Assembly (NCBI GenBank): GCA_937868795.1 | Contig: CALMNM010000134.1 | Span: 1-38,528 of the forward strand | Direction: 5' to 3' | From: an uncultured Acholeplasma sp. | GTDB lineage: Bacteria; Bacillota_I; Bacilli_A; Acholeplasmatales; Acholeplasmataceae | DNA length: 38,528 bases | Shown: positions 2-13,364 of the stretch, piece by piece | Numbering within the stretch: position 1 is the stretch's first letter | How the letters are laid out: every line of letters begins with the position of its first letter | Notes under the pieces: generated by a model | The model's database searches: none | What the model was told of the DNA's origin: nothing | Seen by the model: only the letters and a program-made list of their open reading frames with translations | Position numbers and translations under genes: made by a program

Positions 2-697
2 CGTGGGATCAATACGATGGTTGATTTATATACACTTTACAGTCTACCTTTGCAGGTTCCTAATTTCTATAATGATTTTAGGGATACATCCATTCCCATG
101 GGTGTCAGTGGCTTTGGAACGTATGTTCAACTCACCTTCGCTGCTCCTGAAATTGCTAATAAATGGAATATCGCGCTTGCACCAGGTGTCGATGATGGAT
201 TAGGCAATATTCGTCGTGATAACGTAGGTGCCGCACAGGCATCTGTCATCTTTGAAAAGAGTGAGAAGAAACAAGAAGCTTGGGAGTTGCTGCAGTGGTG
301 GATGAGTACCGAAACACAAACAGATTTTATCTATAAACTGCTCGTCACCTACGGTGATGGATTCCTGTGGAATTCTGCGAATGTGGCTGCATTTGCCACG
401 CTACCCATTCCTGAAGAGCATATTAATGTGATCCTTGAACAATGGGAATATCTTCATGAAGTCCCCAAGGTTCCAGGAGGGTACAAACTCGAACGTGAAT
501 TATCCAATGTTTGGAATCGTGTTGTTTTTGATGGCATCGATGTGCGAAGTGCGGTTGATGATGCAAAAATTTTAATTGAGCGTGAACTTGAACGCAAATA
601 TATCGAATTTGGTTATCTAGATCGAGATGGTGCTGTGATTAGACCCTATTTAATCACAACTATTGATGATGTAAAACGTTGGATTGAGGAGGACTAA
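2..697 (+). CDS. ABC transporter extracellular solute-binding protein, C-terminal part (5' truncated by window)
   Basis: The frame is open to the left edge, so about 232 residues of the C-terminal part are visible and the ATG at 17 is internal. The fragment has the look of the C-terminal lobe of a family-1 sugar-binding protein: a Gly/aromatic segment ([11 protein letters not shown]), a conserved block in which the complex is 'repaired' by helices ([14 protein letters not shown]), and a long charged C-terminal helical tail. The tail after the usual end of the fold (about the last 80 residues) suggests the large type of binding protein found next to DUF5696 genes. It would capture an oligosaccharide outside the membrane and pass it to the permeases that follow. 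The stop lies 2 nt before the next start and the RBS GGAGGA precedes that start, so they are co-transcribed. Ligand assignment to beta-1,2-glucan is inference from the downstream enzymes. Confidence 0.85.
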
Positions 698-699
698 AC

Positions 700-1668
700 A
701 TGACATTCAAAGCGAAATTATGGCATGGCCTCAAACAAATTCGTACGTTTTTTTCGGATCTTTCGACCAAGGTTTTACACTGGCTTGAAGATAAGAATAG
801 AACAACCTATCTCTTCTTAGCTCCTTACGTACTGTTATTCTTCACGTTTATCGTGATCCCCGTCTTTTTGGCAATTATTTTAAGTTTTACCTACTTCAAT
901 GGTATTCAATTTCCCACGTTCAATGGTTTTAATAATTACTTATATATCCTTACTGAAGATGACGTCTTTATGAAGACGGTGCTTCCCAATACGCTTCTAT
1001 TTAGTTTGGTTGTCGGTCCCGGTGGGTATGCATTAAGCTTTATTTTGGCTTGGATGTTATCCCAAGTCACCCCCAAAATACGAACCGTTTTAGCACTCAT
1101 TATCTATTCTCCATCCATGACAGCGGGTGTTGCAATCGCAGTCGTTTGGAAAATCTTGTTTAGTGGTGATGAACAAGGGATGATCAATTCATGGTTACTC
1201 CAACTCTCACTACTCGATGAACCTTTACAATTCTTGCAGAATCCTGATTATTTAATGCCCATTATGATTTTAGTGTCTTTGTGGAGTTCGATGGGTGTAG
1301 GATTTTTAGCAATTCTTGCGGGATTACTTAATGTCAATAAAGAGCTTTATGAAGCGGCTTATATCGATGGTATGCGCAATCGTCTTCAAGAAATCTTTTA
1401 TATTACGATTCCATCCATTAAAAAGCAAATGATGTTTTCAGCCGTCATGAGTATCGTTGGAACATTCTCTGCAGGTGCGATTGGGGTGGCTCTTTCGGGA
1501 TCCAATCCTACCCCTCAAAATTCAGGACAGATGATTATTAACCATATTGAAGACTATGGTATTTTGCGTTCTGAAATGGGTGTTGCAGCTGCATTGTCTG
1601 TCATTTTACTGCTCATCATTTTAGCATTCAGTAAATTCTTCCAGCGAATTCTCAAAGAAGATGAATAA
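700..1668 (+). CDS. ABC sugar transporter permease (MalF-type)
   Basis: A 322-residue inner-membrane permease. After a basic N-terminal segment (about 1-35) there are six predicted membrane spans, the first at about residues 37-62 ([20 protein letters not shown]). The cytoplasmic EAA loop that contacts the ATPase reads [16 protein letters not shown] near residue 220, with the usual G at the conserved position. It forms a heterodimer with the next gene product. RBS GGAGGA lies just upstream, inside the end of the binding-protein gene. Typical MalF/UgpA-type length. No ATPase gene is nearby, so the pair presumably uses a shared MsmX-like ATPase. Confidence 0.93.
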
Positions 1669-1680
1669 GGAGGAAAAGCG

Positions 1681-2541
1681 ATGATTGGTGTCAATTTTAA
1701 TCCAACTAATTTTCATAAGTCTCAATTGAAGATGTACGCGTTCCTCTTCCCATTCGCGATTTTTATGGCGCTTCCTATCGTCTATATCTTTTCGACTGCA
1801 TTTAAGCCTATTGATGAATTGTTTGCTTTTCCCCCACGTTTCTTTGTTATCCAACCCACGATTAATAATTTCCGTGATCTCTTCGTCTTCATCGGTTTTG
1901 GTTTACCCGTCTTAAAGTTTATCGTCAATAGTGTGGTCGTCACATTCTTTGTCGTCTTTACAAGCGTCTTATTTAGTTCGATGGCAGGCTATATTTTATC
2001 CAAGAAGAATTTTAGAGGAAAGAAGTTTATTTTTGAAGTTAATAAACTCGCCCTCATGTTCGTCCCCATCGCAGTGACGATTCCCAGATTCTTAGTCATC
2101 ACCCGGATTGGTATCGTTGATACCATGGCTGCGCATGTCCTACCGATGATTGCGATTCCCGTTGGCTTGTTTTTGGTCAAGCAGTTTATCGACCAAATCC
2201 CCAATGAACTGATCGAAGCAGCAAAAGTGGATGGTGCTGGAGATTTTTACATTTATTTAAAGATAATTGTTCCTTTAACAATGCCTGCACTCGCGACTGT
2301 CGCTATTTTAAGTTTCCAAGCGACGTGGAATAATACGGAAACGTCAACGCTTTTTGTCAGTGATGAACTCAAACAAACGTTTGCCTTTTATATGTCAACA
2401 CTTACCAATGTGTCTAATAGTGTAGCAGCAGCTGGTATCGGCGCTGCAGCAACACTCATTATGTTTTTACCTAATTTAATTATCTTTATTATCATGCAGA
2501 GCCGTGTCATGAGCACAATGACGCACTCTGGCATCAAGTAA
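1681..2541 (+). CDS. ABC sugar transporter permease (MalG-type)
   Basis: A 286-residue permease with six predicted membrane spans. The first is at about residues 18-40 ([20 protein letters not shown]), followed by the MalG-type segment [14 protein letters not shown]. The EAA loop [20 protein letters not shown] sits at about residue 180 and matches the family consensus EAAxxDGA. It is the partner of the preceding permease; the two start/stop sites are 12 nt apart with an excellent RBS (GGAGGAAAAG). The product probably transports the oligosaccharide bound by the upstream binding protein. Confidence 0.93.
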
Positions 2542-2551
2542 GAGGTGCAAG

Positions 2552-4588
2552 ATGACGATACTTAAGCGTTTAACCATCCTCTTCATTTTCATCTCCCTCT
2601 TTGGATTTTCACTTCCTACCCGCGCTGAAACGAGTATATCAAATATTCCTTATAGCACATGGACGATAGGATTTGATGGGGGTTACGTCAGAACTGCCAA
2701 CGCGTATGAAGGCACATTTGTCTTAAATCGTGGGTTTTTGTCGGCGAGAGATATCTTTATTCAAGGGGATATTGTCTACATTGCTGATACGGGAAACTCC
2801 AGGATTTATCTTTATGATATGGAGACCACATTAGATAGTGAAATTACCCACGAACTTATCAAAGAACCGACAGGAATCTTTGTCACAGAAGAGGGTCTCA
2901 TTTATGTCGCAGATGCCAATACGGACATGATTTTGGTCTTTGATGAGAATCATGAACTCATCCACCAATTTGGACGTCCCACAGAACCTCTTTTTGGAGA
3001 ACAATCCATCTATGAACCAAGAAAAGTCGTCGTAGATCCGAGAGGTAATATTTACGTGGTTAGTGATGGCGGTGTCAACGGGATAACGCAACTCGATGCA
3101 GAAGGGCGGTTTTTAGGTTTTTTTGGAATCAACCGTGTCTTTATTACGATTGAACTTTTATTTCAACGAGCGCTCATGAGTGATGAGCAAAAAGAGATGT
3201 TTGCTCCACTCACACCACGTGCCACGACCAACATCTCGATTGATCAACAAGGATTAATCTACACGGTTATAAAAAACGAGTACACAACTCCCTTAAAGAA
3301 ATTAAATATTGAAGGAAACAATATTTTGGGTGGAACCTCAATTCCTGACCCCAATTATGAAGATATCACGGTCGATAAGTATGGCAATATTTATACCGTG
3401 AGTCAAGCCTTTGATACACGAGGTGTCATTGGCGTTCACGATAGTTTTGGTAACCTAATATTCAAATTTGGTACGCAGAAACCCAATAGTTTAAGACTTG
3501 GTGAATTTGCGGGTCCTACGGGGATTGCTGTCGATAAATATGGCGATATTTGGGTTCTTGATGGACTAGGCAATAACGTTCAAGTCTTTTCAAAGACAGA
3601 ATTTGCTACCTCAGTATTGACAGGCATTGAACTTTATCGTATCGGTAAGTATGATGAAAGTGCGGTCTATTTTCAAGAGATCATTCGTCAAAACAGTTTA
3701 TTTGCTCTCGCACATTCGAGATTAGGAAAGTATTATGAACGAAATGAAGATTTTGATAATGCGCTCTTAAGTTACCGGATCGCGAATAATAAAGAAGGAT
3801 ATTCCGTAGCCTTCTGGGAAGTAAGAGACGCGTGGATTAATCAAAACATCGTCTGGATGTTGATCACCCTCGGTGGACTTGTGGTGGTTTGGAATGTCTT
3901 TAAGCGAACCCCAGCATTTGAGACATATCAAAAACAACAATTACATGTTAAAGAAAAAATCAATCGATATCCATTAACTGGGGAAATCAAACTCATGCTG
4001 CACATGTTGAAACATCCAGTGGATGCGATATATGATATCAAGTATAAACAGAAGATTCGGGTTAAGACGGCAGCTTTCATGTATGTTATCTTTGTCCTAC
4101 TCAATATTTTGAGTGACTATTATGTCAAGGGCTATCTCTTTAGGAATAATATCGATGACATGGTCTTTTTCTACGAAATCTTGAAGTGGTCAGTCCCTCT
4201 CTTACTCTTTGGGTTAGGAAACTACTTAGTGAGTACACTTCAAAATGGAGAAGCGTTTTATCGTGATATTTTCATTGGGTCGATAGTGGCATTACTCCCT
4301 ATTTTCCTCTTTAAACTGCCGATTGATATTATCAGTAATGTGTTAACGTATAATGAAGCTTTCTTATATGATTTCGGTTATCTCATCATGATTTCTTGGT
4401 CTGTCATCATGATGCTCATCATGATTAAAGAACTCAATAATTTCAAATATGGTGAACTTGTCGTTAATCTGTTGTTAACCATCTTTATTATGATCATTAT
4501 CATCGTCCTATATCTTATTATCAGCATTCTATCCTCACAACTCTTTGATTTCTTTATCAATCTCTTCCAGGAGGTGTTTTCGAGATGA
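2552..4588 (+). CDS. Secreted NHL beta-propeller / TPR / Yip1-like membrane protein
   Basis: A 678-residue multidomain protein. It has a signal peptide (residues 1-25, cleavage likely after T-R-A), then a beta-propeller with six NHL-like repeats between about 55 and 345 (VYIADTGNSRIYLYD, IYVADANTDMILVFD and similar). A pair of TPR-like helical repeats follows at about 354-410 (GIELYRIGKYDESAVYFQE), a membrane span near 432-450, and a C-terminal Yip1-like domain with about five spans (about 500-678). The propeller and TPR should face outside. Genes of this layout occur beside DUF5696 and sugar permeases in Firmicutes, but to my knowledge none has an established function. The stop overlaps the next start (ATGA). 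A scaffold or sensor for the transporter is a guess; no catalytic motif is visible. Confidence 0.8.
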   Translation: MTILKRLTILFIFISLFGFSLPTRAETSISNIPYSTWTIGFDGGYVRTANAYEGTFVLNRGFLSARDIFIQGDIVYIADTGNSRIYLYDMETTLDSEITHELIKEPTGIFVTEEGLIYVADANTDMILVFDENHELIHQFGRPTEPLFGEQSIYEPRKVVVDPRGNIYVVSDGGVNGITQLDAEGRFLGFFGINRVFITIELLFQRALMSDEQKEMFAPLTPRATTNISIDQQGLIYTVIKNEYTTPLKKLNIEGNNILGGTSIPDPNYEDITVDKYGNIYTVSQAFDTRGVIGVHDSFGNLIFKFGTQKPNSLRLGEFAGPTGIAVDKYGDIWVLDGLGNNVQVFSKTEFATSVLTGIELYRIGKYDESAVYFQEIIRQNSLFALAHSRLGKYYERNEDFDNALLSYRIANNKEGYSVAFWEVRDAWINQNIVWMLITLGGLVVVWNVFKRTPAFETYQKQQLHVKEKINRYPLTGEIKLMLHMLKHPVDAIYDIKYKQKIRVKTAAFMYVIFVLLNILSDYYVKGYLFRNNIDDMVFFYEILKWSVPLLLFGLGNYLVSTLQNGEAFYRDIFIGSIVALLPIFLFKLPIDIISNVLTYNEAFLYDFGYLIMISWSVIMMLIMIKELNNFKYGELVVNLLLTIFIMIIIIVLYLIISILSSQLFDFFINLFQEVFSR

Positions 4589-6750
4589 AAAAACTCATAC
4601 TTATTGTGTTAAGCATTAGTTTACTCTTTATCCCATTCTCGATACAAGCCGAAGAAGATGAATATGATTTCCTTTCCACGGGAATAACGACATTGCTTGA
4701 ATCGAATCTTTTCACCAGAGATGAAGATTATACGATCTACAATCAACCTGCGATGGATATGACGAATTTTGTATTAATCATGGAAAATGCATCCTACCAA
4801 GTATTTGTCAATCCTTTGGGATTAGCATTGCGAATTATCGATAAATCTTCTGGATTTGTTTGGGCAAGTGATATTAACGATCTTGAACTCTATCCCCTCA
4901 CTGGAGGATGGATCAGACGCATTCGCTCAGCCATCACCATTGATTATTTGAACGAGAACAATATTGCTATTACCTCATCGATGTTACAGCGGCGAGCAGA
5001 TGAAAATGCGATTACATCTTACCAAGTGAATGGCTTAATTACGCGGTTTTATGTTGATTTTCACATCGAACAGATCTCCTTAGAGTATACAGTTGAACTC
5101 ACTGATGATGGCATTATCATCACCGTTGATCGAAATTCCATTGATGAATATGGAACCTCACGATTGACCGCAATCACCCTCTATGAATTTTTTGGCAGTG
5201 TGCATAGTGATGATGTTCCTGGATATTTCTTTATTCCCTCGGGAAACGGAGCACTTGTAAGATTTACAGCGACATCAACCATTAACAACCTTTATCGTGC
5301 ACGCTTTTACTCTCAAGATAAGTATCGCAGTTTTGTTGATGGTGATTCCAATCTAAACTATCCAGTTTATGGTAGTGTTCATGGGGTTGATCAACACGCC
5401 ATCTTTACCCATATTCTTGAAGGTGCAGAATTTGCTGAATACGTCTATAAACCCCCCACGTATCAAACCGAGTTTCATAGTCAAAATGCCGTCTTTCTTA
5501 TGCGGGAAAACCATGTTCAACCCATCTCAGGAGGGGAAACATTAACCGTTTATGAAAGTGACATTAAGGATTACAATCCAAGGGTAAAACATACCTTTAT
5601 CGAAGGTACAGATGCCAATTATATCGGATTTGCAAAAACACTAAAGGCATCCATGATTGCATCTGGAATGCTCAAAAAATCATTAGCACCCGATGAAGTA
5701 TCACTTCATATGGATGTCTTCATGAAGGATTATGAACAAGGACTTATTTTCAAGAATCCTTACGTGATGACATCGGTGACTGATTTGTTATCAATCAATC
5801 GAGATCTAGTTAGTGAAGGCATTTCTTCGATTCGCTATACACTCAGAGGCTACAATCGTGGTGGCTACTCTGATCGCAGCATGGATAACGTCAAATTTGA
5901 TCGCAGTCTTGGTGATTTTGATGACTTAAAGGATCTTGATATTGAATTCTATTATGATCCAACGGTCGAATACAGTTATCAAAGTCAAACCCCGAGAAAT
6001 ACCTTACAAATGGTCAATAAAAATTATTATACAGCTTCGCTTTCTCAAGGTGACTACTATCGATTTGTGATGGATATTGAAGCGATTGAGGCTCAGTATG
6101 ATGACGCTTATGCTACCCTTAGCAAACATGGAAGAATCGCCATCGATGGATTATCCAACGAACTCAATTCTAACCAATCATTAACGAGAACTGAAGTGTT
6201 ATCCATCTATGAAAATCTCTTTAGTGAACAAGTCAGTATGTATCGTCCCTCGTATTTCAATATCGGTCATACCTCTGCTTATTATATGAGTTCTCTTTAT
6301 CACAATCGGTCAAGATTCTACACCGATAGTGTGCCCTTTGAACAAATTCTTTTATCTGGATATATGCCTGTTTACTCGCAATTTTTAAACTTCACCTCTA
6401 ATATTAACGTCGATCTCCTCAAGACGATAGAATTTGGTATTCTCCCTTCATTTTTGATTACTGCTCAACCATCTTATTTGTTAAGCGATACGATGAGTAG
6501 TGAGTTTTACGCGACCTACTATGATAATTTAAGAGTTTATATTTTAAGAGCATATAACGAAGCTTTTGAAGCGTTAAGTCCTGTTATCGGTCATGAGATT
6601 ATCGATCGAGAAGTGCTTGCAACCGGTGTGGTTCGTGTAGATTATGATCATGGATATTCGATTTATGTGAATTACACCCAAGAAGTGTTTACCTCAGGAG
6701 CGCTTACGATCCAACCTTTTGATTATCTTGTCAGTGAGGTGATCTTATGA
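4585..6750 (+). CDS. Secreted DUF5696 family protein, candidate carbohydrate-active enzyme
   Basis: A 721-residue exported protein with a signal peptide (1-22, cleavage after SIQA). An N-terminal part (about 55-330) is rich in beta-strand and has the look of a sugar-processing beta-sandwich (LGLALRIIDKSSGFVWAS). A central part (about 340-640) alternates helices and strands as in a TIM barrel, including RYTLRGYNRGGYSD and AIDGLSNELNS (Asp about 521). The C-terminus (YSIYVNYTQEVF) is again beta. This matches DUF5696, which is regularly found with large solute-binding proteins and permeases. I infer a secreted glycan-binding or glycan-cleaving role; no activity is established. RBS AGGAGGT precedes the ATG, which overlaps the previous stop by 4 nt; its own stop overlaps the next ATG. 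There is no lipobox and no C-terminal span. Confidence 0.75.
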   Translation: MKKLILIVLSISLLFIPFSIQAEEDEYDFLSTGITTLLESNLFTRDEDYTIYNQPAMDMTNFVLIMENASYQVFVNPLGLALRIIDKSSGFVWASDINDLELYPLTGGWIRRIRSAITIDYLNENNIAITSSMLQRRADENAITSYQVNGLITRFYVDFHIEQISLEYTVELTDDGIIITVDRNSIDEYGTSRLTAITLYEFFGSVHSDDVPGYFFIPSGNGALVRFTATSTINNLYRARFYSQDKYRSFVDGDSNLNYPVYGSVHGVDQHAIFTHILEGAEFAEYVYKPPTYQTEFHSQNAVFLMRENHVQPISGGETLTVYESDIKDYNPRVKHTFIEGTDANYIGFAKTLKASMIASGMLKKSLAPDEVSLHMDVFMKDYEQGLIFKNPYVMTSVTDLLSINRDLVSEGISSIRYTLRGYNRGGYSDRSMDNVKFDRSLGDFDDLKDLDIEFYYDPTVEYSYQSQTPRNTLQMVNKNYYTASLSQGDYYRFVMDIEAIEAQYDDAYATLSKHGRIAIDGLSNELNSNQSLTRTEVLSIYENLFSEQVSMYRPSYFNIGHTSAYYMSSLYHNRSRFYTDSVPFEQILLSGYMPVYSQFLNFTSNINVDLLKTIEFGILPSFLITAQPSYLLSDTMSSEFYATYYDNLRVYILRAYNEAFEALSPVIGHEIIDREVLATGVVRVDYDHGYSIYVNYTQEVFTSGALTIQPFDYLVSEVIL

Positions 6751-8621
6751 AAAAATGGAAGATCACTTACAAGCAACGAGAAGCGTTGCTAGGTTACTTG
6801 TTTATCGGATTATGGATCATAGGTTTTGGTGTATTTGCTCTTTACCCCATTTTGTACTCGTTTTTCTTGAGTCTAAACCATGTGACGATACCAACGACAG
6901 GGATCAATTTAGAGTTTATTGGCTTTGAAAACTATCGTCATGCATTCGCGATCGATCGTGTGATGGTCCTTGAACTAGGAAACTTTGTTCAAGACTCTGT
7001 TTTGATGATGGTGATTATCAATGTATTCGCGTTGATTTTTGCGATGATCTTAAATATGAATATTAAGTTTAAGGGATTCTTTAGAACTGTTTTCTTTCTT
7101 CCTGTTGTCATCGTTTCTGGTCCAGTCATGCAGGAACTCTTGAACAATGAAGCCATCATTTTACCTGGAATTACCAATTATCAAGTCATTCAAATCTTTA
7201 CCGCCATTTTTGGTCGAGGATTCGGTGAGTTAATCGTTGGTGTATTCAGCAATTTGATTTACATGTTCTGGTTTTCTGGTGTTCAGATTATCGTATACTT
7301 GGTCATGCTTCAAAAGATGAACAAAGAAGTGTATGAAGCGTCAGAAATCGATGGAGCAAGTCCATGGGAACAATTTTGGAAGGTCACACTCCCATTTTTG
7401 AAGCCAATCATTTTGATTAACATGATCTATACGCTCGTTATGCTCGCTGGATTTTCAACCAATCCTATCATCATTTTGATCAAAGATTACATGTTTAGAA
7501 CTGGTGAAATCGGGAATGGTTTTGGCTTTAGTGCGGCACTCGTTTGGATCTACTTTGTAGCGATTGCCTTAATCGTCATCATCCTCTTTGCACTATTTTC
7601 CACCCGAGGTAAACTTCATTTTGTCAGAAATAGTGATCACTATGTCTTTGACATGTTGCGCTATCAAGAAAAACCATCACTTTTTGCTAAGCATCCGAAG
7701 ATCATGCATTACCGTAGAAAACTCATTGGGCGAAAAGGTACCGACGGGTGGATATTCAAAGGATTTACGTATTTACTCATTGCATCGGTGGGTTTCACCT
7801 TTCTCTATCCTTTTATTTTCCTTGCATTAAAGAGTTTACAATCCCCCTTTGATTTAATCGATAGCAGTGTTGGTCTCATTCCTACCTCACTCTATTTCGA
7901 TAACTATACCAAAGCTTTTGCCACCTTAGGATTTTTCAATGCACTTCAAGAAAGTGTGAAGATATCCTTCTTCCCCGCACTTGCTCAAGTGGTCAGTACC
8001 GCATTGATCGGCTATGGATTAGCTCGATTTGAATTTCCTTTCAAGAAAACGATCATCGTTCTCATCCTGATTACCTTCATCATTCCTGCACCTGTCTTAA
8101 TGATTCCAACGTATCTCATGTACCGAGATCTTGGCATCCTCGGTAATCTCGGATCATTTATCTATCCTGCACTCTTTGGTCAAGGCATCAAGAGTACCAT
8201 TTTCATCATGATTTTCTATCAATTCTTTAATACGATTCCTAAAGTGCTCGATGAAGCGGCGAGAGTTGATGGTGCAGGACCCATTCGTGTCTTCTTAAAA
8301 GTAAGTCTGCCTTTAGCTATCCCAGCGGTTGTCGTTGTCTTCCTCTTCAGTTTTGTCTGGTACTGGAATGAAACCTATCTCACGGGGCTATACATGCCTG
8401 AAGCACGGACATTACCTTTACAATTGTCAAGATTTGCAGATTCGTTTAGACAGCGTTTTGGCAATCCAGATCCTAACTCAGATGGATTTGTCGACCGTCT
8501 AAATGAAGCCATCTATATGGCAGGAACATTGATCAGTATTGTCCCATTATTATTACTATATTTTGGTTTACAAAAATGGTTCGTCGAGAGTGTCGATCGA
8601 TCCGGAATCACAGGAGAATAA
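6747..8621 (+). CDS. Fused ABC sugar permease (MalF-type + MalG-type in one chain)
   Basis: A 624-residue membrane protein, about twice the normal permease length. Residues 1-285 form one complete permease with an EAA loop EASEIDGASPWEQFWKVTLP near 197. A basic cytoplasmic linker follows at about 286-333. Residues 334-624 form a second permease with the MalG-like opening FLYPFIFLALKSLQSPFDL and a second EAA loop, EAARVDGAGPIRVFLKVSLP, near 502. The reading frame is continuous with no internal RBS/start at the junction that I can see, so it looks like a true fusion giving a fixed 1:1 heterodimer. The ATG overlaps the DUF5696 stop (ATGA). It would need an external ATPase. Whether it shares the binding protein with the two upstream permeases or has its own partner cannot be seen. 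Confidence 0.9.
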   Translation: MKKWKITYKQREALLGYLFIGLWIIGFGVFALYPILYSFFLSLNHVTIPTTGINLEFIGFENYRHAFAIDRVMVLELGNFVQDSVLMMVIINVFALIFAMILNMNIKFKGFFRTVFFLPVVIVSGPVMQELLNNEAIILPGITNYQVIQIFTAIFGRGFGELIVGVFSNLIYMFWFSGVQIIVYLVMLQKMNKEVYEASEIDGASPWEQFWKVTLPFLKPIILINMIYTLVMLAGFSTNPIIILIKDYMFRTGEIGNGFGFSAALVWIYFVAIALIVIILFALFSTRGKLHFVRNSDHYVFDMLRYQEKPSLFAKHPKIMHYRRKLIGRKGTDGWIFKGFTYLLIASVGFTFLYPFIFLALKSLQSPFDLIDSSVGLIPTSLYFDNYTKAFATLGFFNALQESVKISFFPALAQVVSTALIGYGLARFEFPFKKTIIVLILITFIIPAPVLMIPTYLMYRDLGILGNLGSFIYPALFGQGIKSTIFIMIFYQFFNTIPKVLDEAARVDGAGPIRVFLKVSLPLAIPAVVVVFLFSFVWYWNETYLTGLYMPEARTLPLQLSRFADSFRQRFGNPDPNSDGFVDRLNEAIYMAGTLISIVPLLLLYFGLQKWFVESVDRSGITGE

Positions 8622-11015: not shown

Positions 11016-11040
11016 CAAAAAAAAGTGCCTTTCGGCACTA
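11016..11040 (-). terminator. Rho-independent terminator of GH35 gene
   Basis: Read on the - strand: AGTGCC, tetraloop GAAA (a stable GNRA loop), GGCACT, then eight T. Its 5' arm overlaps the TAG stop of the GH35 gene. It lies back to back with the + strand terminator just before it. Confidence 0.85.
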
Positions 11041-13323
11041 ATTAAAGTGGATGATGATGCGATCATGAAGCTTCGCATGGGTATTAGAACGTATGATAAC
11101 CATATCTTTTGTGTCATGAACGGTGTAAGAGGGGGATGGTGTGATCAAACGATTGACGATCAGTCTTATCTCATCTTCCTCTTGGGTTAAGCGAAATGCT
11201 AAATAATCGTCATGAATCTCCAAAAGTTCAGCGGTTGAATCGATGATTTTCCCTTGAGGAATTGTGAAATCGAGCGGTAACATCATCGCGTCTTGACTAA
11301 AGACATCCAGTGATTTACCTTGAAATAAAGGTTTTCCTCGATAAGAAATCTTTACTTTCTGATCAAAATGATCAAGATTGATGAGATGGAGTAAGTGGGG
11401 GTCTTTATCACCCTGCATTAAGGCAATAAGATGCCCTTGGTGATCCATCAATTGTAGGTTAGAAGTGACATCAAGATGATTTAGGATGTCTATTGTGACT
11501 TCCAAATGGCCTGGATAAGAAGACGATATGAGCGCGAATCGATTCCCTAAGACACCGACACTTTCGTTGGTATTCATCAATTGAAAAAGAGGTTGATCTT
11601 TTGATTCTGTCACTTGTGCAAAATAGGAACGAAACGATTGTGCTTCACGAATCGGATGACGACGTGTGAGTGTGATGAATGGAACTTCCCAATCAACCAT
11701 CACTGGTTTTGATCGGATACCTAAATAGTCAAGGAGTAATGTATCCTCTTGACCAAGAAGATTTCTTGTTGGGCATTCCCCAGCAAGAATGAGTTTTCCA
11801 CCTTGTTTATGATAATCAATAAGTTTCTGTTGAAGATCATTGGCCATGAAACGTGTCGTTGGGACAATCACCAATTTCGTTTTTTGTGGATCTATAGGTC
11901 GTCTTTCGAGATCGATCGCACCTAATTGGTAATTGAGCAACATCATCTGTTTGATGAGGGTATCCCAGACGACACCATTACGTTGAAATTCATGTGCGGT
12001 TTGGATGTCTTTAACGACGGGATTTTTTTCATCTGCAATCGTGGTCATGTAAATATCACTGATCCACGCAATCGCGATATCATCTTTCATAGGTTTTAAT
12101 TCACCAATATAAGGACTTAATGAGGTGAGCATGCGTGTGGTCCTTGCTAAGCGATCAAAGGTATAATTAGTCGTTCCATCAGGCTGAATAGGTGCAGCAT
12201 ATCCATGACGTTCACCTGTGATTGCGATAAAAGGACTATGTCTTAGAGCACCATATTTAAAACGCGGATTAAATCCTCCGGTAAGTAAGTAATAATTGAT
12301 CATTTTATAACCTTGCGCCATATTCATTCGCAATTTGAAATCTGCCGCAGATGGAAGTGTTCTAGAAGCCAGGTTATCACCAAAATTACCATCACCACAG
12401 TTAAATTCCAAAGAAGTTAGCGGTTGTTCACCTTCAAGGGTTGCCTCTAAAAACTCATGGATGATGTAATAGTCATGAACATCCTCAATGGTCAAATTTC
12501 CAAAATAGACATCTGTTCCTGGAATCATTTTGGTCTTTTGCCAGGTTAACATGAGTTGACTGATGCCGATCGGAAACGTTTTTCCTCTTCCATGAGAAGT
12601 CCCGTGAATGTTGATGAAATAATTCATGTCTTTCACACCTAAATTGATAAACATCGATTCGAGAGCTTTGGCATATGCAAGATAGTATTCTCTTTCGTAT
12701 TCCCCACAGCTCAAACGTTTTTGATAAAGATCGTTTTTGTGGATGCTATTTGGCATGAAATAAGGTGAATCGATTGATTGTCTTGAGACCCAAGGAAGCA
12801 TTCCAATTTCATTGTCGAGTTGAATCCCGATAATCGGACCTCCATGTTGTTGCAAATGATGACCAATCTCATGGAGTAATTGTTGGTACCAGGTATGAAC
12901 TTCGTGTAAAAATCCAGGATGAAGGTAATCCACAATGGGACCTTGAATAGGTTTGCCATCGATCGTTTTAGGCTTGACATCAGGATATTTTTCGAATACC
13001 CATTCTGGAATTCCTTCATTCATCAATTCAGCCATGACATAGGGCCCTGGTCTTAGAAAAACATAAAACCCTTTTTCTTTACAGAGTTCAATGAACCCAT
13101 TGAGGTCATAAATATCTGTTTTTCCGAAATCAAGATCGTTTTCTTTTTCGACATGGCCAATCCAGGGAACGTAGGTTGCAATCGTGTTAAGACCCATCGC
13201 TTTCGCAAGGTCAAGGTGCATGGACCATCTCGATTTAGGCAGCCTGAAATAGTGAACTTCACCAGCCATCAAGAGGATAGGCTTTTCGTTATCATAAAAG
13301 TTGTGATTGCGATAATAAATCAT
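11038..13323 (-). CDS. GH35 family enzyme, probable beta-1,2-glucosyltransferase rather than beta-galactosidase
   Basis: 761 residues from the ATG at 13323, chosen because GGAGG lies 9 nt upstream; an ATG 12 codons earlier has no RBS. The N-terminal TIM barrel has GH35 hallmarks: GEVHYFRLPKSRW (residues 21-33), FLRPGPYVMAEL (89-100) and the acid/base site GIQLDNE (Glu172). The nucleophile region is TSLEFNCGDG (Glu306), whereas classical beta-galactosidases have an E-F/W-x-x-G-W-F type motif. There is no signal peptide, so it is cytoplasmic. It faces genes for GH144, GH94 and GH3. A GH35 protein encoded beside GH144-type genes in Ignavibacterium album was shown to be a glycosyltransferase on beta-1,2-gluco-oligosaccharides, and I infer the same subtype here. 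Beta-galactosidase remains the alternative. Confidence 0.8.
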   Translation of the reverse strand: MIYYRNHNFYDNEKPILLMAGEVHYFRLPKSRWSMHLDLAKAMGLNTIATYVPWIGHVEKENDLDFGKTDIYDLNGFIELCKEKGFYVFLRPGPYVMAELMNEGIPEWVFEKYPDVKPKTIDGKPIQGPIVDYLHPGFLHEVHTWYQQLLHEIGHHLQQHGGPIIGIQLDNEIGMLPWVSRQSIDSPYFMPNSIHKNDLYQKRLSCGEYEREYYLAYAKALESMFINLGVKDMNYFINIHGTSHGRGKTFPIGISQLMLTWQKTKMIPGTDVYFGNLTIEDVHDYYIIHEFLEATLEGEQPLTSLEFNCGDGNFGDNLASRTLPSAADFKLRMNMAQGYKMINYYLLTGGFNPRFKYGALRHSPFIAITGERHGYAAPIQPDGTTNYTFDRLARTTRMLTSLSPYIGELKPMKDDIAIAWISDIYMTTIADEKNPVVKDIQTAHEFQRNGVVWDTLIKQMMLLNYQLGAIDLERRPIDPQKTKLVIVPTTRFMANDLQQKLIDYHKQGGKLILAGECPTRNLLGQEDTLLLDYLGIRSKPVMVDWEVPFITLTRRHPIREAQSFRSYFAQVTESKDQPLFQLMNTNESVGVLGNRFALISSSYPGHLEVTIDILNHLDVTSNLQLMDHQGHLIALMQGDKDPHLLHLINLDHFDQKVKISYRGKPLFQGKSLDVFSQDAMMLPLDFTIPQGKIIDSTAELLEIHDDYLAFRLTQEEDEIRLIVNRLITPSPSYTVHDTKDMVIIRSNTHAKLHDRIIIHFN

Positions 13324-13364
13324 GGATAGAATCCTCCGTTTTTTACCATTTATAATCATTCGGG

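What the first reader, a model, noticed from the sequence alone, without database searches (positions are those of the whole stretch)
4585..6750. DUF5696 protein as a candidate new family of secreted glycan-active enzyme
The domain order (beta-sandwich, TIM-like alpha/beta part, C-terminal beta region) is that of many glycoside hydrolases. Segments such as RYTLRGYNRGGYSD and AIDGLSNELNS look like barrel strand ends with polar residues. It is secreted, stands between transporter genes and has no known function. It could be an extracellular glycosidase or a glycan-binding partner of the large solute-binding protein.
Basis: inference. Interest (0 to 1): 0.55.

Follow-up and report, generated by a model that had tools for sequence, protein, structure and literature searches.

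The report
Glycosidase-like part of a sugar importer
This secreted protein of unknown function is built like a sugar-cutting enzyme but mostly lacks the usual cutting residues, and it sits at a fixed place inside a conserved set of genes for importing complex sugars, so it more likely handles or passes on sugar chains than cuts them.

Summary
The ORF is real: 4585-6750 (+), 721 aa, Pfam DUF5696 (E 2e-104), with a signal-like N-terminus and no lipobox. Profile comparison joins DUF5696 to the GH129 glycosidases over sandwich, barrel and C-terminal part (hhalign probability 98-99%), and hmmsearch reaches the anhydrogalactosidase DagB, GH129 and, weakly, GH101; GH31 fails. The catalytic pair is not a family feature. 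The column aligned with the GH129 nucleophile is Asp in 16 of 75 non-redundant homologues (the window included), and the columns aligned with the acid/base are acidic in 7 and 9 of 75.

The main discovery is the setting. In all 41 loci examined, DUF5696 lies directly after an NHL-TPR-Yip1 membrane protein and, in 40 of 40 that could be judged, directly before permeases. The full order is large CBM35-like SBP, permease, permease, NHL/Yip1, DUF5696, permease, permease. The NHL-Yip1 profile and DUF5696 occur together in 48 of 392 genomes and apart in one. Cargo enzymes differ. I read DUF5696 as a mostly non-catalytic glycosidase-fold subunit of a double-permease glycan ABC importer. Structure prediction failed (two-sequence alignment), so no fold search was run. 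No paper in the searched library names DUF5696.

The parts
4585..6750 (+). DUF5696 protein (721 aa): GH129/DagB-like sandwich + barrel + C-terminal beta domain
4585..4650 (+). signal peptide or N-terminal anchor (residues 1-22), no lipobox
   Evidence: cleavage site by eye
5617..6444 (+). barrel part, about residues 345-620 (borders approximate, from profile alignment)
6145..6147 (+). D521 (AIDGLSNEL), aligned with the GH129 nucleophile; Asp in 16 of 75 homologues, 10 of 10 in the window clade
6241..6246 (+). Y553-R554, aligned with the GH129 acid/base (SSEE); acidic in 7 of 75 and 9 of 75
6430..6432 (+). E616, the only universally acidic column of the barrel part (E 50, D 25 of 75); role unknown
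2552..4588 (+). NHL beta-propeller + TPR (probably outside) + Yip1-type membrane part; next gene upstream
6747..8621 (+). fused double ABC permease with two EAA loops (downstream pair)
700..1668 (+). ABC permease, upstream pair, first
1681..2541 (+). ABC permease, upstream pair, second
2..697 (+). C-terminal end of the large solute-binding protein (cut by the contig end)
8625..23522 (+). cargo genes of this copy: two PF10091 proteins, LacI regulator, GH13, GH3, SOGP-type GH94 (GH35 on - strand)

Best explanation
DUF5696 is a secreted protein with a GH129/DagB-like glycosidase fold that serves as a fixed extracellular component of an unnamed type of carbohydrate ABC importer. Shown: it is homologous to GH129-type glycosidases; it has a fixed place between an NHL-TPR-Yip1 membrane protein and permeases, in a cassette with a large CBM35-like SBP and two pairs of EAA-bearing permeases; it co-occurs with NHL-Yip1; cargo enzymes differ between cassettes. 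Inferred: most members have lost the glycosidase mechanism and use the old substrate cleft to hold and present glycan chains to the large SBP and permeases, held at the membrane by the NHL-TPR part of the Yip1 protein; ATP comes from a shared MsmX/UgpC-type ATPase. In this copy the cargo is most likely beta-1,2-glucan oligosaccharides.
For: Fold: hhalign of 34 and 75 DUF5696 sequences against 7 GH129 proteins gives 98.0% (E 1.8e-13, 464 columns) and 98.6% (E 7.4e-16); controls GH31 1-2%, GH101 5-7% (two sequences only), NHL-Yip1 6-11%, SBP 0.4-1.4%, permease under 0.3%, GH13 52-57% over ~140 columns. hmmsearch hits DagB-type 8rzk E 2.8e-7 with three segments in the same order. Seven GH129 proteins match both DUF5696 and GH101/GH129 Pfam models. 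No conserved catalytic pair. Cassette: 41 of 41 loci NHL/Yip1 directly upstream, 40 of 40 permease directly downstream, all gaps 18 bases or less; also in Butyrivibrio fibrisolvens and Paenibacillus cellulosilyticus, the latter next to a UgpC ATPase. Co-occurrence: 48 of 392 genomes with both, 1 with DUF5696 only. Cargo differs: PF10091/SOGP/GH3, GH16 + GH94-like + GH30, NamZ + GH3, GH16 + CBM6, NAGPA, GH20 and GHL10.
Against: The window clade keeps Asp at the nucleophile position in 10 of 10 members, and one barrel column is acidic in 75 of 75 (E616), so a different active site is possible. Acid/base alignment in the second half of the barrel is weak; hhalign with the 7-member window clade alone gave only 42.6% and stopped before that site. 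DagB itself shares only one of NagBb's two catalytic residues and is active, so loss of one aligned residue does not prove loss of activity. No binding or transport data exist.
Confidence: 0.6

Rival explanations
1. DUF5696 is an active extracellular glycosidase or transglycosidase with its own catalytic residues, trimming glycans before import; specificity differs by clade (beta-1,2-glucan in the window clade, with D521 as nucleophile).
For: GH129-type fold; D521 conserved in 10 of 10 members of the clade whose loci carry fused permeases and PF10091 genes; a 100% acidic column E/D616; DagB shows that this fold can be active with a partly different residue set.
Against: No acidic pair conserved over the family. 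The acid/base position is Tyr/Arg in the window. Each well-covered cassette already has separate glycan-active enzymes, and DUF5696 stays when these change.
Confidence: 0.25
2. DUF5696 is mainly a structural or assembly factor of the importer complex and does not touch glycans; the sandwich and C-terminal domains bind the NHL-TPR protein and the permeases.
For: Invariant residues are mainly Gly/Pro/Tyr/Asn in sandwich, barrel and C-terminal part; strict linkage to NHL-Yip1 and permeases.
Against: The fold comes from glycan-binding enzymes and the large SBP partner carries a CBM35-like region; a scaffold would not need a barrel (inference).
Confidence: 0.12
3. It is an ordinary uncharacterised hypothetical protein, and the neighbourhood is only operon drift in one lineage.
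For: The searched paper library names DUF5696 nowhere.
Against: The same order is seen in Acholeplasma relatives, other orders and families of the phylum sample, Butyrivibrio (Clostridia) and Paenibacillus, with identities to the window protein down to 19% among 34 aligned members.
Confidence: 0.03

Closest known systems
GH129 alpha-N-acetylgalactosaminidase NagBb (PDB 5wzn)
   Same: Profile similarity over sandwich, barrel and C-terminal part through a GH129 profile; in the window D521 aligns with the nucleophile Asp
   Different: Acid/base Glu absent; nucleophile Asp in only 16 of 75 DUF5696; DUF5696 is secreted and in a transport cassette
DagB (ZGAL_3152, PDB 5opq; 8rzg), exo-alpha-1,3-(3,6-anhydro)-D-galactosidase, first called GH129-like
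   Same: Best PDB match by hmmsearch (E 2.8e-7 for 8rzk); three segments in the same order; sandwich + TIM barrel + Ig-like C-terminal domain
   Different: DagB needs Asp202, Asp486, Glu517 and Glu531; no acidic pair is conserved in DUF5696
Carbohydrate ABC importers of the MalFG type; Lin1841 beta-1,2-glucooligosaccharide SBP of Listeria innocua
   Same: EAA loops in the permeases; SBP domain of the large SBP is closest to Lin1841 (5ysb, E 2.2e-32)
   Different: Two permease pairs, a CBM35-like extension on the SBP, and two extra fixed proteins (NHL-TPR-Yip1, DUF5696)

Membership tests
Pfam DUF5696 (PF18952) | score above the curated cut-off (25.6 bits) | tested here: met
   350.7 bits
GH129 | end-to-end profile similarity | tested here: met
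   hhalign 98.0% and 98.6%, at 11-12% identity: remote homology, not family-level similarity
GH129 | catalytic nucleophile Asp (NagBb Asp435, named as catalytic; its role as nucleophile recalled) | tested here: inconclusive
   present in the window (D521) but in 16 of 75 homologues
GH129 | acid/base Glu (NagBb Glu478, recalled; SSEE motif) | tested here: not met
   window Y553/R554; acidic in 7 and 9 of 75
GH101 | match to the GH101 barrel | tested here: inconclusive
   hmmsearch 6qfo E 0.0013; hhalign 5-7% against two sequences
GH31 | profile similarity | tested here: not met
   hhalign 1-2% against 10 sequences
GH66 | profile similarity | not tested
   no GH66 set was fetched; no GH66 Pfam or PDB hit
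Carbohydrate ABC importer (cassette) | SBP and permeases with EAA loops | tested here: met
   EAA by pattern in U1 37/37, U2 37/37, D1 28/29, D2 25/29, fused 11/11 with two
Carbohydrate ABC importer (cassette) | dedicated ATPase | tested here: inconclusive
   no importer ATPase identified in the cassette; UgpC adjacent in Paenibacillus; the whole genome was not searched for one
Active glycosidase | hydrolysis of a glycan | not testable with these tools
   needs an assay

The most novel reading that the evidence does not exclude
Many Bacillota and their wall-less relatives carry a distinct glycan importer type in which a retired glycosidase (DUF5696), tethered by an NHL-TPR-Yip1 protein, receives polysaccharide chains from a CBM-bearing binding protein and feeds two MalFG-type permease pairs acting as one machine; exchange of the cargo enzymes re-tunes it for beta-1,2-glucan, other beta-glucans or peptidoglycan.
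Probability: 0.35. Interest if true: 0.8.

Novelty: new variant of a known kind. Interest (0 to 1): 0.6.

Why it matters
It turns an anonymous domain into a testable part of a defined machine. If true, it adds obligatory extracellular parts to sugar ABC importers, gives a case of a glycosidase fold reused for transport, and offers a genomic marker (NHL-Yip1 + DUF5696 + four permeases) for finding glycan uptake loci whose cargo can be read from the neighbouring enzymes.

Tried and rejected
Idea that the first upstream permease lacks an EAA loop: my first pattern missed it (0 of 37); the alignment and a corrected pattern (37 of 37) show it is present; dropped. Idea that E616 equals a GH129 catalytic residue: the alignment is unclear there; not claimed. 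Weak DUF5696 hits in other genomes: of the ten Pfam-scanned, seven are GH129-like and three are GH13 amylases, not DUF5696. Paper PMC4264767 (passages) was checked for the cassette: a different ABC cluster. PMC12102758 (passages) has no occurrence of 'ABC transporter' or 'DUF'.

Full report
OBSERVATION. ORF 4585-6750 (+) is a 721-aa protein with a strong DUF5696 match (E 2.1e-104, residues 155-714), no NCBIfam match and no phmmer match in the PDB. It has one N-terminal hydrophobic segment. Over 75 non-redundant family members, 71 have such a segment, 1 has a lipobox and 1 has another hydrophobic segment. The closest named relative is an Acholeplasma MAG (84% identity). The window's genome has four DUF5696 genes.

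FOLD. In the phylum sample, seven ~600-aa proteins passed the DUF5696 cut-off weakly and also matched GH101, GH129 and/or DUF6259 models over overlapping stretches. A profile of these seven hits the solved GH129 enzyme NagBb at E 1e-223 and DagB at 1e-26, so they are GH129-type proteins. hhalign of 34 DUF5696 against these seven gives 98.0% (E 1.8e-13) over 464 columns, window residues 209-706; with 75 sequences it gives 98.6%. Controls are far lower, apart from GH13 (52-57% over ~140 columns, a piece of barrel). hmmsearch of DUF5696 against the PDB ranks DagB-type chains first (2.8e-7 to 6.7e-7), then GH129 (0.0012-0.0017) and GH101 (0.0013); the DagB match has an N-terminal, a barrel and a C-terminal segment in order. 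DagB is a distorted beta-sandwich, TIM barrel and Ig-like domain (PMC5698469, passages).

CATALYSIS. In the 34-sequence and in the window-clade alignments, window D521 (AIDGLSNEL) falls on the GH129 YLDVFTCNE Asp, which corresponds to NagBb Asp435, named as catalytic and conserved in DagB. The SSEE region (NagBb Glu478, recalled) falls on window Y553-R554 (only; the alignment stops earlier). In 75 non-redundant proteins (90 collected, 79 after removal of contained copies, 75 after removal above 85% identity, ORFs under 600 aa dropped), column 521 is Asp in 16 and Glu in 13, and columns 553 and 554 are acidic in 7 and 9. Invariant positions are P218, Y346, P584, N602 and some Gly; the only universally acidic barrel column is 616 (E 50, D 25). 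So there is no conserved catalytic pair. Against this: the window clade (10 non-redundant sequences, one branch in the tree) is Asp at 521 throughout, so activity in this clade stays open.

CASSETTE. I fetched 40 wide stretches chosen by hand from the listed hits for spread plus the window. In 41 of 41 loci an NHL/TPR/Yip1 gene (or its Yip1 half) is directly upstream; in 40 of 40 a permease is directly downstream (the 41st ends at its contig end); gaps are -44 to 18 bases. The large SBP is present in 36 of 41; the other five reach a contig end. Eleven loci, the window included, have the downstream pair fused, and all eleven carry a PF10091-type gene next to it. EAA loops: 37/37, 37/37, 28/29, 25/29, and two in each of 11 fused proteins. 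Annotated plasmids of Butyrivibrio fibrisolvens and Paenibacillus cellulosilyticus show the same order. The NHL-Yip1 profile is found (E <= 1e-30) in 48 of 392 genomes, all of which are among the 49 with DUF5696 at E <= 1e-50 (my count from the list); the exception, G042, has a fragment. The seven other genomes over the DUF5696 cut-off are the GH129 carriers.

PARTNERS AND CARGO. The large SBP has an SBP domain closest to Lin1841 (E 2.2e-32) and an N-terminal half that matches part of cycloisomaltooligosaccharide glucanotransferase (E 7e-10), which I take for its CBM35 (that it carries one there is recalled; one SBP has a sub-threshold Pfam CBM_35 match). The NHL-Yip1 protein has a signal-like segment, NHL and TPR repeats, then membrane segments from residue 432, so NHL and TPR probably lie outside. 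Cargo genes differ: PF10091, SOGP, GH3 and GH35 in the window; GH16, GH94-like and GH30, or NamZ and GH3, in two other cassettes of the same genome; GH3 with a glucosamine isomerase domain, GH16 with CBM6, NAGPA, GH20 and GHL10 elsewhere. These scans covered only part of the downstream genes (7 + 10 + 10 ORFs; some had no glycan-related match, for example a tRNA synthetase in L109). A part that stays while the enzymes change is more likely transport machinery than a linkage-specific enzyme.

LITERATURE. DUF5696: 0 papers; DUF6259: 0; 'YIP1 family protein' + 'sugar ABC transporter': 1 paper, on Pseudomonas taxonomy by its title (listing only); 'NHL repeat-containing protein' + 'carbohydrate ABC transporter permease': 0. 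The library is open-licence PubMed Central only.

VERDICT. Observation confirmed; interpretation partly supported. The fold guess was right in kind; a family-wide active glycosidase is unlikely; a partner role in a conserved importer cassette is the best reading.

Noticed in passing
L072 and L071 (window's own genome, contigs C154 and C22): The same genome carries DUF5696 cassettes next to GH16/GH94-like/GH30 genes and next to NamZ/GH3/DUF624 genes, suggesting separate importers for other beta-glucans and for peptidoglycan pieces in a wall-less lineage.
   Followed up: partly
window 11038-13359 (-): GH35 protein in a beta-1,2-glucan locus; a GH35 from Ignavibacterium album in such a locus is reported as a glycosyltransferase acting on beta-1,2-glucosidic linkages (PMC8861115, search listing only), so 'beta-galactosidase' may be wrong here.
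   Followed up: no
L109:10862-13639: A cassette permease ORF of 926 aa carries a ~540-aa highly charged, helix-like N-terminal extension.
   Followed up: no
L078:3395-6319: Large SBP: N-terminal ~550 aa looks like CBM35-like domains, unusual for a solute-binding protein.
   Followed up: partly
L079:8204-10401: DUF5696 reading frame is broken into two ORFs (526 and 204 aa) inside an otherwise complete cassette.
   Followed up: no
L111 (Paenibacillus cellulosilyticus plasmid): The cassette is followed by several LLM-class flavin oxidoreductases and more SBPs, an odd cargo set for a sugar importer.
   Followed up: no
L085, L097, L104, L108: DUF5696 proteins of 1142-1317 aa have long N-terminal extensions; Pfam scans of L085 and L097 gave no convincing match there.
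   Followed up: partly
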